Positions 19,448 through 24,289 of a stretch of DNA of 64,000 nucleotides are shown here, in pieces. The notes under the pieces were generated by a model. It was not told the origin of the DNA. It ran no database searches and was given only the letters and a program-made list of their open reading frames with translations. Each line of letters starts with the position of its first letter. Position 1 is the first letter of the stretch. The translations under genes and the position numbers were made by a program. The stretch is from the NCBI RefSeq assembly GCF_947499945.1, contig NZ_CANMQD010000001.1, positions 62,001-126,000 of the forward strand. The letters run 5' to 3'. Origin of the DNA: an uncultured Sulfitobacter sp. (GTDB taxonomy: Bacteria > Pseudomonadota > Alphaproteobacteria > Rhodobacterales > Rhodobacteraceae).

Positions 19448-20338
19448 ATGGACAATCTGCGCGGCGCGACCATTATGGTGCTGTCCATGCTCGGTTTCGC
19501 GATCGAGGATGCGTTTATCAAAATGATGGGCGATGCCTTGCCCGTGGGCCAGATCCTTGTGATGCTAGGGATTGGCGGCTCGGCCGTCTTTGCCGTTGTG
19601 GTGCTGGCTCAAAAGCGCGCATTGTTCGAGCGTGACATGCTCGCCGCCCCCGTCCTCACCCGCGCCATGGGCGAGATCATCGGCACCATGTGCTTTATCT
19701 CTGCCATCGTCTACACCCCTCTGTCCACCGCCTCCGCCATCTTGCAGGCAACGCCTCTGGTCGTGACACTCGGTGCTGCACTCTTCCTTGGCGAGGCTGT
19801 TGGCTGGCGCCGCTGGGCCGCAATCATTGTGGGCTTTATCGGCGTTCTAATGATCATCCGTCCGGGCCTTGACGGCTTCTCGCCACTCTCGCTCTTCGCA
19901 GTCGGCGGCGTTTTCGGCCTTGCCCTGCGCGACATCTCCACCCGCAAAATCTCCAAATCGCTTTCCTCGATGCAGCTGAGCTTTCTCGGTTTTCTTGTCC
20001 TGATCCCTGCGGGTTTCGTTATGCTGGTCATTACAGGCCAATCCGTTACGGCGATGGACACGCACCTCTGGCTTCTGATCATCGCCTCCATCGCAATCGG
20101 CGTCTTCGCCTATTACGGTATCGTCGCCGCCATGCGTGTGGGCGAAGTCAGCTTCGTCACGCCCTTCCGCTATTCCCGCCTGATCTTTGCCATGATCATC
20201 GGCGTGAGCTTTTTCGGGGAGCGGCCTGACCTCCTCACCATAATTGGCGCCATCGTTATTGTGGCTTCCGGCATCTACACAGTGTTGCGTGAGCGCAAAC
20301 ACCGCATCAAACCCATCGCCGCACCTTTAAAACCCTGA
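19448..20338 (+). CDS. EamA/DMT family transporter
   Basis: 296 residues, about ten membrane segments in two EamA repeats. The first half ends with 'TPLSTASAILQATPLVVTLGAALFLGE', the typical loop-helix of the family, and the second with 'VSFVTPFRYSRLIFAMIIGVSFFGE'. The latter is characteristic of the S-adenosylmethionine-uptake/RhaT-like DMT branch in alphaproteobacteria, but the substrate stays unknown. A ribosome site AAAAGGGA precedes ATG 19448. It stands 53 bases before eno on the same strand. Confidence 0.88.
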   Translation: MDNLRGATIMVLSMLGFAIEDAFIKMMGDALPVGQILVMLGIGGSAVFAVVVLAQKRALFERDMLAAPVLTRAMGEIIGTMCFISAIVYTPLSTASAILQATPLVVTLGAALFLGEAVGWRRWAAIIVGFIGVLMIIRPGLDGFSPLSLFAVGGVFGLALRDISTRKISKSLSSMQLSFLGFLVLIPAGFVMLVITGQSVTAMDTHLWLLIIASIAIGVFAYYGIVAAMRVGEVSFVTPFRYSRLIFAMIIGVSFFGERPDLLTIIGAIVIVASGIYTVLRERKHRIKPIAAPLKP

Positions 20339-20379
20339 GCAGCGGCTATATGACGGGCACAAATCAACCGAAATCCTGA

Positions 20380-21666
<1,287 letters not shown>

Positions 21667-21668
21667 CG

Positions 21669-22280
21669 GTGGACCGCGCTCAATTCTGCTGGGTTGTGGG
21701 TGATACGCTCACCCACTTCACCCCCGCTTCAAACGCTGGCGGCATCAATGCACTTGGCTTGATGCCGCCTTCCATGCTTGCGAAAAAGGCTGGCCTTGAT
21801 CCGTCCACTATCCTGCTTCGCGCCAATCCTGTTGAGTTCAAGATAAAGCGCCACACGGTACGCCTCAACCACCAGCGTCCGCTATTGGCAGGCCGTGGCA
21901 AAGAGGGGCAATTCCTCGAGGGCCACACATTGCAAAGCTGGGCCGCCCAGCTCGACACCCGCATCTTCCTGTGGCGCGGACAACAGGGCGACGCCTTCGC
22001 CCGCAGCCTGCCCGACGACACCCTGCGCTTTGATATCGACACGGCAACCCTCTATGACCTGTATCGCGATCATATCTGGCTCAGCCCGATTAACAGCGGC
22101 AGTGCCATGCGCAAACCCGCCATGCGCGGCGATTGGCTTTACGTAAGCGTGAACGCCACACAGCGCGAATTCTGGTACAACCGCCGCACCCCAGAGCGCA
22201 ATTTTATTAATGACCGCGTCAAAGAAATATCGCTCACCTGCCCGATCCCGCCCGACATGCTTAAAGCGCTGCGCAAATGA
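21669..22280 (+). CDS. DUF7002-like protein, possibly an ADP-ribosyltransferase-type fold
   Basis: 203 residues. I place it in the DUF7002 group by its overall pattern, with moderate confidence. Near the N-terminus is 'LTHFTPASNAGGINALGL', an H-F-T..N..I..GL arrangement like the NAD-binding start of DarT and other ADP-ribosyltransferase-fold proteins. Further on are 'RLNHQRPL' and a conserved-looking 'IFLWRGQQGDAF'. Function is not known and the fold link is inference. It begins two bases after the eno stop with a GTG codon just after it (reading GTGGACC at 21669), and overlaps the next GNAT gene by 4 bases, so the two are probably co-expressed. Confidence 0.65.
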   Translation: MDRAQFCWVVGDTLTHFTPASNAGGINALGLMPPSMLAKKAGLDPSTILLRANPVEFKIKRHTVRLNHQRPLLAGRGKEGQFLEGHTLQSWAAQLDTRIFLWRGQQGDAFARSLPDDTLRFDIDTATLYDLYRDHIWLSPINSGSAMRKPAMRGDWLYVSVNATQREFWYNRRTPERNFINDRVKEISLTCPIPPDMLKALRK

Positions 22281-22783
22281 CCCTCATCCGCCCCGCCACA
22301 ACGCCTGACGACCTCGCCGCTGTCCGCCAGTTGTGCTGGGACTATCGCACGCATCTGAACGCCGCCAGCCCCATCGACGCACAGATCACCGAGACATTTT
22401 ATCCCGTTCCCAAGTACACCGCACTGATGGACACGATTGCGACAGAACATGCCCGCCCCAAAGGCATCATCCTGCTGGCAACGCTTGACAATCAACCCGT
22501 TGGCTGCGCCATGACCCACGCGCTGGACGCGCATTCCGCCGAGATCAAGCGCCTCTACGTCGCGCCCCATGCACGCGGCCATGGCATCGCTCGCAAACTG
22601 GTCACGGCCTGCATGGAGCAGGCCCGCACTGACGGCTTCACCCGCATCCTGCTGGATACCTCGGTCACCCTCATCCCAGCACGCGCCCTCTACACTGCTA
22701 TGGGCTTTTCCCAGCGCGGCCCTTACCAGAACATCCCCGCAGACGTGCTACCGCATCTGGTGTTTTTTGAGGCTGCCCTGTAG
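22277..22783 (+). CDS. GNAT family N-acetyltransferase
   Basis: 168 residues of a complete GNAT domain: 'IRPATTPDDLAAVRQL' at the start, and the acetyl-CoA loop 'IKRLYVAPHARGHGIARKLV' (about 93-112), then 'ALYTAMGFSQRGPY' near the end. The substrate is unknown. The ATG lies in the 4-base overlap with the DUF7002-like gene, so the pair may act on the same target, for example one modifying and the other capping or reversing (speculative). Confidence 0.86.
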   Translation: MTLIRPATTPDDLAAVRQLCWDYRTHLNAASPIDAQITETFYPVPKYTALMDTIATEHARPKGIILLATLDNQPVGCAMTHALDAHSAEIKRLYVAPHARGHGIARKLVTACMEQARTDGFTRILLDTSVTLIPARALYTAMGFSQRGPYQNIPADVLPHLVFFEAAL

Positions 22784-22810
22784 GGCAAAGCAGCAACACG
22801 GGAGATAGCC

Positions 22811-23167
22811 ATGAGCCGCAAACGCACCATCGCCCTCGCAGGCGCAGCCCTCCTCGCCACTCTCGCCCTGATCGAACGCGCCACCAACAGCGTGGAACTG
22901 GTCCCTGCGAACGTCATTGGATTGCAGCAAGGTATTCCCAATGAAGGGCCAAACCGATGGATCGCCGCCTTTGAGCTAACCACGTCGGAAATCAGAGGCG
23001 ACAAAGCGTTTAACATCACAGAAGACGGAACCGCCCCCCTGCTTGCTTACGGTGATCCCATTTGCCTGCGACTGCATCGCCGCGGTTGGGCAGCACCCAA
23101 ATTTCAGATTGTCTCCGATAAGAGCTGCTGGGACGGCGTTGATATGCCTGCATGGACAATTGAATAA
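22811..23167 (+). CDS. Small membrane-anchored or secreted protein, unknown function
   Basis: 118 residues with a basic start (MSRKR) and one hydrophobic segment (about 6-20), no lipobox and no clear cleavage site. It is therefore either membrane-anchored with the rest in the periplasm or secreted. Two cysteines (DPICLR and KSCWDG) in the outer part could form a disulfide. GGGAGA lies seven bases before the ATG. It is the last gene of the eno-linked group and converges on anmK. I do not recognise the family. Confidence 0.65.
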   Translation: MSRKRTIALAGAALLATLALIERATNSVELVPANVIGLQQGIPNEGPNRWIAAFELTTSEIRGDKAFNITEDGTAPLLAYGDPICLRLHRRGWAAPKFQIVSDKSCWDGVDMPAWTIE

Positions 23168-23185
23168 CGTACACAGACCTTTAGA

Positions 23186-24289
23186 TCACGGCACGCTTAC
23201 CGTCCCGCCGCCCACAGCCGCGCGCACACCAGTCGTCCCCGCGCAGCTCGTCGGCATTCCCCGCGCCACGCGCACAGCAAGATAGGCAAAGGCCTGCGCC
23301 TCCAACATATCGCCGTCCAGACCCACTTCTTCAACAGGCACCACAGGACAGTCAAGCGACACCTCAAGCATCTGCATCAGAACGGGATTGCGCCGCCCAC
23401 CTCCCGTCACCAAAACGCGGCTCGGTGGCGTTGGACAATGCTGCATCGCCTCAGCCACCCCCGCCGCACACATCGCCGTGAGGGTCGCCGATGCATCGCT
23501 GTTCGACAACTCCCGCACAAGCGCCACCATCTCGGCAAAATCATTTCGGTCCAGCGACTTCGGCGGCATGCGCGCAAAATACGGCTCCGCCAAAAACAGC
23601 TCCAATGCCCCCACTTCCACCGTGCCGCCCTGCGCAACAGCACCGTCGCGGTCATAAGCCAGCCCCAACCGCTCCTGCATCAAATCATTCACAGGCGCAT
23701 TGGCAGGTCCGGTGTCAAATGCCAGCAGCGCCCCCTCATGATGCGGCTCGGGGATGCTCGGATCAACCCAAGTCAAATTCCCAACTCCGCCCAAATTCAA
23801 AAACGCCACAGGCTCGGTCACCCCGATATATCGCGCACAAGCATGATGGAAAAACGGCGCCAGCGGCGCGCCCTCACCGCCCAACTCCACATCCGCACTG
23901 CGAAAATCCCAAACCACAGGAACACCCAGCTCTTGCGCCAGCATTGCACCATTGCCCACCTGCAACGTGCCTTGCATCCGCGGCGCATGGGCAAGCGTCT
24001 GGCCGTGAAACCCGATCATATCCACATCCGTAAAATCCCGCAGAATCTCGAGATGTGCCGCTTCAATCACACCCGCCGCCGCCTCCACAGCCGCACCAGA
24101 CCAAAGCCCGAAACCCGCCGCGACCCCCTTGCGCTCCTGCCCCGAATACTCCCGAAACGCCGAGCGCCCAAAACCAAAAATGTCGCGTCCGTCCGTCTCC
24201 AGCACCGCAACATCAACCCCGTCCAATGACGTCCCCGACATCGCACCAGCCGCACGCACCACACCCGTCTTTGCAATGGCTTTACTCAT
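23186..24289 (-). CDS. anmK: Anhydro-N-acetylmuramic acid kinase
   Basis: AnmK cleaves and phosphorylates 1,6-anhydro-MurNAc to MurNAc-6-phosphate in cell-wall recycling. The 367-residue protein has '[15 protein letters not shown]' near the N-terminus, the catalytic-base region '[12 protein letters not shown]', '[11 protein letters not shown]', '[13 protein letters not shown]', and the ATP-binding '[15 protein letters not shown]'. ATG 24289 is preferred to an in-frame start at 24367 because of AAGGA upstream and family length. nagZ, another recycling gene, is at 37748-38755. Divergent from tyrS. Confidence 0.95.

What the first reader, a model, noticed from the sequence alone, without database searches (positions are those of the whole stretch)
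21669..22783. DUF7002-like protein with an ADP-ribosyltransferase-like N-terminus, coupled to a GNAT behind eno
The N-terminal H-F-T..N..I..GL pattern resembles the NAD-binding start of DarT-type enzymes. The gene sits 2 bases after eno and overlaps a GNAT gene by 4 bases. If the fold link holds, this could be a modifying pair of unknown target.
Basis: inference. Interest (0 to 1): 0.5.

Follow-up and report, generated by a model that had tools for sequence, protein, structure and literature searches.

The report
DUF7002: a predicted DarT-like ADP-ribosyltransferase

Summary
The gene is real: 21669-22280 (+), 203 aa, 2 nt after eno, overlapping a GNAT gene by 4 nt; Pfam DUF7002. The fold guess holds: AlphaFold2 models of the window protein and of a 25%-identical relative (pLDDT 89.3, 87.9) both have DarT1 (8baq) as best Foldseek match (E 2.9e-4, 4.8e-6). 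E186, R51 and N142 never change in 34 rows and H16 is kept in 33; E, N and His align with DarT1's, R51 with R52 by spacing only. Close pairs show purifying selection. I predict an active ART, probably on a nucleic acid or nucleotide; untested.

The GNAT pairing fails: that GNAT follows eno without DUF7002 in 20 of 28 other same-genus genomes. The lasting link is to eno (18 of 20 window-type loci). 11 of 12 carriers searched, own genome included, show no macrodomain or NADAR, so a standard DarTG-type pair is unlikely. In 9 of 15 distant loci DUF7002 sits in a cassette; 8 hold a kinase-adenylosuccinate synthetase fusion with the phage-PurZ serine.

The parts
20392..21666 (+). eno, enolase, 424 aa; the conserved upstream neighbour
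   Evidence: Pfam Enolase_C/Enolase_N; upstream in 18 of 20 window-type loci
21669..22280 (+). DUF7002 gene, 203 aa, predicted ADP-ribosyltransferase
   Evidence: Pfam; AlphaFold2 pLDDT 89.3, pTM 0.86; fold matches
21714..21716 (+). codon of H16, proposed NAD-site His
   Evidence: 33 of 34 rows; aligned with the DarT1 and KptA His
21819..21821 (+). codon of R51, proposed equivalent of DarT1 R52
   Evidence: 34 of 34 rows; 35 residues after the His, as in 4 of 5 DarT1-type rows; hhalign places it 4 residues off
22083..22100 (+). codons of S139-P-I-N142-S-G144, proposed ARTT substrate loop; N142 = DarT1 N104
   Evidence: N142 and G144 in 34 of 34; N aligned with the DarT1-type Asn by hhalign
22224..22226 (+). 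codon of E186, proposed catalytic Glu = DarT1 E152
   Evidence: 34 of 34; aligned with the DarT Glu
22277..22783 (+). GNAT acetyltransferase, 168 aa; neighbour, not a specific partner
   Evidence: Pfam Acetyltransf_1 3.2e-20; behind eno without DUF7002 in 20 of 28 genomes

Best explanation
The DUF7002 protein is a catalytically competent member of the ADP-ribosyltransferase superfamily, nearest to the DarT group and DarT1 in particular. It binds NAD+ with H16 and the fold core, uses R51 and E186 for catalysis, positions a target with N142 in the loop before the last strands, and transfers ADP-ribose, most likely to a nucleic-acid base or a nucleotide. It is made from the eno transcript, probably by translational coupling. 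It works without the GNAT and without a neighbouring eraser, so its product is tolerated, made only on a trigger, or removed by an unidentified enzyme. Shown: gene, predicted fold, residue conservation, selection, context. Inferred: NAD cleavage, transfer, substrate class, coupling.
For: Models of the window protein and of L054 (25% identical) reach pLDDT 89.3 and 87.9. DarT1 8baq is the best Foldseek match of both: E 2.9e-4 and 4.8e-6, probability 1.00 each. VIA: 8baq Z 9.1 (151 aligned, rmsd 3.8) first for model 1; for model 2, 7omu 9.5 (153, 3.6) and 8baq 9.4 (158, 3.6), tied. The VIA rows shown (43 and a capped 50) are ARTs by title or, for several toxins, by recall, apart from CC0527 and VPA0770, whose titles do not say. 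Profile score against five DarT1-type rows 24.0, shuffle maximum 18.7, collinear from the His to the Glu. R51, N142, E186 in 34 of 34. Residue roles in DarT1 from passages of PMC11543638. dN 0.044-0.097 against dS 0.25-0.63 in five pairs, not all independent.
Against: No NAD or substrate test. Sequence-only evidence is weak: PDB profile searches give DarT1 at E 0.067 and 0.058, and hhalign prints a probability of 5%. Whole-alignment TM-scores are about 0.44 with rmsd over 8, so loops differ. In the second model's Foldseek list cholera-toxin-type ARTs rank 2 to 9, above DarT2, so the fold alone does not fix a nucleic-acid target. R51 is not aligned with R52 by hhalign. D54, essential in DarT1, has no clear counterpart. 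The lack of Macro/NADAR in 11 of 12 genomes speaks against a DarT-like toxic DNA target.
Confidence: 0.6

Rival explanations
1. An NAD+ glycohydrolase or conditional growth-arrest enzyme: it cleaves NAD+ on a trigger such as phage infection, with eno giving steady expression, and needs no eraser.
For: No Macro or NADAR in 11 of 12 carriers; sporadic gene: 17 of 394 family genomes at E <= 0.001, as defence genes often are.
Against: No PADLOC match for the window protein; no sensor domain or constant partner; the window-type gene keeps one core-genome site; invariant N142 in the target loop suggests an acceptor.
Confidence: 0.15
2. An RNA 2'-phosphotransferase-like (KptA/Tpt1), protein or small-molecule ART, harmless to the cell.
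For: KptA/Tpt1 is the next fold group by VIA, and the KptA profile gave the strongest short match, hhalign score 29.2 over 24 columns with 0 of 100 shuffles reaching it; no KptA match in the window's genome. Cholera-toxin-type protein ARTs rank above DarT2 for the second model.
Against: KptA aligns over about 90 residues only, from its residue 85 on, so its N-terminal part has no counterpart; DarT1 aligns over 151.
Confidence: 0.15
3. One reading: DUF7002 and the GNAT act together on one target.
For: 4-nt overlap here; both genes also together in L022/L043 and three Tateyamaria loci.
Against: GNAT without DUF7002 behind eno in 20 of 28 other same-genus genomes; GNAT matched in only 5 of 18 eno-linked DUF7002 loci, 5 of 16 assessable.
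Confidence: 0.04
4. A pseudoenzyme that binds NAD or ADP-ribose without catalysis.
For: No activity known; no paper with the word DUF7002 in the library.
Against: R51, N142, E186 unchanged in 34 of 34 rows.
Confidence: 0.06

Closest known systems
DarT1 (E. coli C7, PDB 8baq), guanine-specific ssDNA ADP-ribosyltransferase of DarT-NADAR
   Same: Best Foldseek match of two models; His, Arg, loop Asn and Glu in the same order; His-to-Arg spacing 35 as in 4 of 5 DarT1-type rows
   Different: No NADAR in 11 of 12 carriers; about 38 more residues between Arg and Asn; no hit by the Pfam DarT model; no clear D54
DarT2 (Thermus, Thermosipho, M. tuberculosis; 7omw, 7omu, 7yk3)
   Same: Same fold, VIA Z 7.2-9.5; catalytic Glu motif
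   Different: DarT2 has His at the loop position (H119), DUF7002 has Asn; no macrodomain in 11 of 12 carriers
KptA/Tpt1 RNA 2'-phosphotransferase (PF01885)
   Same: N-terminal His motif and fold core, about 90 residues
   Different: No counterpart of the first 84 residues of KptA in the alignment
Pfam DUF7002 (PF22531)
   Same: Full-length member, 113.2 bits
   Different: Listed as a family of unknown function; no ART statement seen for it
Phage PurZ/DatZ/MazZ 2-aminoadenine gene set (only for the distant branch)
   Same: Adenylosuccinate synthetase relative with Ser for the catalytic Asp; HD hydrolase nearby
   Different: Bacterial, kinase-fused, with DUF7002 and an unknown protein; not present at the window locus

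Membership tests
Pfam DUF7002 (PF22531) | Profile score over the curated cut-off | tested here: met
   113.2 bits, cut-off 27, profile 2-189 of 195
ADP-ribosyltransferase superfamily | ART fold | tested here: met
   on predicted models only
ADP-ribosyltransferase superfamily | Conserved catalytic Glu and NAD-site His or Arg | tested here: met
   E186 34/34, H16 33/34, R51 34/34
ADP-ribosyltransferase superfamily | NAD+ cleavage with ADP-ribose transfer | not testable with these tools
   Needs a bench assay
DarT (PF14487) | Match to the Pfam DarT profile | tested here: not met
   hmmscan lists DUF7002 only, at E up to 1
DarT1 | Catalytic set R52, D54, M71, N104, E152 (passages) | tested here: inconclusive
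   E and N aligned, R by spacing only, L/I/M72 a plausible M71, no clear D54
DarT1 | ssDNA guanine ADP-ribosylation | not testable with these tools
   Needs a bench assay
DarTG / DarT-NADAR toxin-antitoxin system | Macrodomain or NADAR antitoxin gene | tested here: not met
   None at E <= 0.001 in the window's genome; both absent in 11 of 12 carriers searched
KptA/Tpt1 | N-terminal domain plus ART domain | tested here: inconclusive
   Alignment starts at KptA residue 85; no Pfam hit

The most novel reading that the evidence does not exclude
DUF7002 is an unrecognised family of purine-directed ADP-ribosyltransferases that work without a known eraser. In one branch it is coupled to a bacterial PurZ-like kinase-synthetase fusion with an HD hydrolase, a cassette that would make or police 2-aminoadenine-type nucleotides; in Rhodobacteraceae it became a stand-alone gene driven by eno.
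Probability: 0.2. Interest if true: 0.8.

Novelty: new variant of a known kind. Interest (0 to 1): 0.5.

Why it matters
It gives a named family of unknown function a testable activity (NAD-dependent ADP-ribosylation) with specific residues to change. DarT-group ARTs are normally held in check by a dedicated eraser; a conserved relative kept behind a core glycolysis gene, with no macrodomain or NADAR in the genome, would mean a benign or conditional target. The distant branch ties the same fold to a bacterial gene set resembling the phage 2-aminoadenine pathway.

Tried and rejected
Rejected: GNAT as a specific partner. Unlikely: a simple DarTG or DarT-NADAR system. An ADP-ribosylglycohydrolase-family gene exists in 2 of 12 carriers, in the window's genome on another contig, so a distant eraser is not excluded; no non-carrier genomes were run as a rate control, and three of the 12 are 83-90% complete. 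No sign of phage origin: no PHROGs match, none of 26 IMG/VR candidate stretches encodes a relative (one scan, close relatives only).

PADLOC: no match for the window pair; of 10 cassette proteins one gave a weak match, the L053 fusion to VakA (E 0.0018, 16.9 bits).

Considered: whether the 594-688 nt between eno and the GNAT in four same-genus genomes (L070, L071, L073, L081) is a decayed DUF7002. No match at 1e-5 and none seen by eye in the frames; its nature is open.

Led nowhere: sequence searches of PDB gave no significant hit for DUF7002. Viral structure library: best a phage RNA 2'-phosphotransferase, E 6.4e-3. The promoter and terminator scan gave no more sites than shuffles, and no + strand terminator in 20000-23400. 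Paper searches: DUF7002, none; ART + enolase + operon + Roseobacter, none; adenylosuccinate synthetase + defense island, none; seen as listings only. Passages, not whole papers, were read of PMC11543638, PMC8342488 and PMC12884076.

Rows dropped: L043 and L045 as duplicates of L022 and L032, and L025 for a truncated start, before the 34-row counts; the own genome and L096 (eno cut at a contig end) before the 28. The weak matches G262 and G599 were never aligned. The label 'DarT1-type' for L063 and L099-L102 is mine, by resemblance to 8baq; their specificity is unknown. The Macro profile standing for DarG is recalled.

Full report
The observation. The gene at 21669-22280 (+) starts with GTG, encodes 203 residues, begins 2 nt after the eno stop and overlaps a GNAT gene (22277-22783) by 4 nt. 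Pfam calls it DUF7002 with 113.2 bits and the GNAT Acetyltransf_1. NCBIfam, PHROGs and PADLOC give nothing for DUF7002. The window's genome has one match. The genus is probably Sulfitobacter: the same-genus carrier G031 and the record titled Sulfitobacter sp. SS_bin_37 share a contig of 12,950 bases and gene order; this is an inference.

Distribution. Rare and sporadic: 2 of 60 in the relatives search, own genome included; 17 of 394 family genomes at E <= 0.001, 15 over the cut-off; 4 of 299 in the phylum, 3 over the cut-off. On plasmids, 4 records match the window protein and 10 a distant relative, of 72,556.

Fold. An alignment of the window protein with 16 relatives gave a model with pLDDT 89.3 and pTM 0.86. 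Foldseek's best PDB match is DarT1 8baq (E 2.9e-4, probability 1.00), the only one under 0.001, followed by DarT2 structures and then Tpt1/KptA. VIA-align puts 8baq at Z 9.1 (151 aligned, rmsd 3.8), 7omu at 8.0 (137, 3.8), KptA/Tpt1 near 6 (about 90 aligned) and other ARTs below. A second model, of the distant relative L054 (25% identical), was made as a test: pLDDT 87.9, 8baq again first by Foldseek at E 4.8e-6, but followed at ranks 2 to 9 by cholera-toxin-type ARTs ahead of DarT2; VIA gives 7omu 9.5 and 8baq 9.4, tied, with the DarTs in the first seven rows. The two alignments share sequences, so the tests are not independent. Z near 8 can occur without kinship, as the tool notes say; here the rows shown are ARTs by title or recall, except CC0527 and VPA0770, whose titles do not say.

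Catalytic residues. In 34 rows R51, G30, F100, W102, N142, G144, R153 and E186 never change; H16 is kept in 33. Passages of the DarT1 paper (PMC11543638) name E152 as the ART glutamate, R52, M71 and D54 as needed, and N104 as the residue that contacts the target base, where DarT2 has H119. hhalign aligns DUF7002 with five DarT1-type rows from the His to the C-terminus, putting N142 on their Asn and E186 on their Glu; its printed probability is only 5%, but 0 of 150 column shuffles reached the score (likewise 0 of 100 for mixed DarT rows and 0 of 100 for KptA). R51 is placed four residues off by hhalign, although the His-to-Arg spacing is 35 in the window protein and in 4 of 5 DarT1-type rows. 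D54 has no clear counterpart.

Selection. In five close pairs, not all independent, dN is 0.044-0.097 and dS 0.25-0.63 for DUF7002, so the protein is under purifying selection, though it changes faster than eno (eno dN 0.004-0.018).

Neighbours. In 18 of 20 window-type loci eno lies directly upstream, 15 of them within 33 nt of the homologous start and 6 with a 4-nt overlap; L034 and L036 lack eno in 11 kb. Part of that set came from a scan seeded with eno-linked genes; in the family search alone the link holds in 9 of 11. DUF7002 identity tracks that of the neighbours EamA (r 0.70) and eno (r 0.54), 0 of 2000 permutations each, which fits long co-inheritance at this site with many losses; transfer by recombination through the flanks is not excluded. 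The GNAT tells another story: of 30 same-genus genomes searched for eno, 28 others were assessable; none has DUF7002 there and 20 have the GNAT, 16 of them within 40 nt of eno. A matching GNAT occurs in 5 of 18 eno-linked DUF7002 loci, 5 of 16 if the two with under 500 nt downstream are left out.

No known eraser. Of 12 window-type carriers, NADAR and Macro each occur in one, the same genome G617. The ADP-ribosylglycohydrolase family occurs in 2 of 12, including the window's genome on another contig. A standard DarT toxin with its antitoxin is therefore unlikely; the target may be benign, conditional, or cleaned by something else. No non-carrier control was run.

The distant branch. Of 15 distant loci, nine (L037-L039, L052-L057) share a cassette and six (L023-L026, L040, L041) do not. 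Of the seven cassette loci with a named source five are from rhizobia and kin. All nine have a roughly 456-aa protein (three tested, no Pfam match; no PDB relative); eight have a clustered P-loop kinase-adenylosuccinate synthetase fusion, and L003, from the genome of L037, has an ORF with the same motif; six have a YfbR-like HD protein, over the Pfam cut-off in one of four tested. All 8 fusions read G-S-E-G-K-G where adenylosuccinate synthetase has its catalytic Asp; passages of PMC12884076 say this Asp is Ser in all 147 phage PurZ sequences of their tree. The best PDB relatives are archaeal adenylosuccinate synthetases and then phage PurZ. I read this as a PurZ-like set, untested. It hints that DUF7002 enzymes act on purine nucleotides or bases; the window locus has none of these genes beside it.

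Conclusion. The fold claim is strong, the enzyme claim probable, the substrate claim a guess (nucleic acid or nucleotide, purine favoured), and the GNAT pairing not supported.

Noticed in passing
L038, L039, L052-L057 (for example L054:3518-7910), also L037: Conserved cassette: HD protein weakly YfbR-like (6 loci), P-loop kinase-adenylosuccinate synthetase fusion with the PurZ-type Ser (GSEGKG in 8 of 8), DUF7002 overlapping or abutting it, and a ~456-aa protein without known relatives. Looks like a bacterial relative of the phage 2-aminoadenine gene set.
   Followed up: partly
L039 (Rhizobium sp. Kim5 plasmid NZ_CP021125.1): The cassette sits near AbiJ-NTD4, RelA/SpoT-domain, recombinase and transposase genes, a defence-island-like setting.
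   Followed up: no
L070, L071, L073, L081, behind eno: 594-688 nt between eno and the GNAT in four same-genus genomes, with opposite-strand ORFs and no DUF7002 match.
   Followed up: partly
L006 (G262:C12:175753-175836): A 205-aa open frame matches only DUF7002 profile positions 2-29 (E 4.2e-5): perhaps another ART family sharing the N-terminal His motif.
   Followed up: no
window 22811-23167 (+): Small 118-aa ORF after the GNAT without Pfam or NCBIfam match; partial matches recur behind the GNAT in L070 and L084.
   Followed up: no
G000:C2:373134-374198 (L106, L107): ADP-ribosylglycohydrolase-family gene in the window's genome, far from DUF7002: the only candidate eraser seen there.
   Followed up: no
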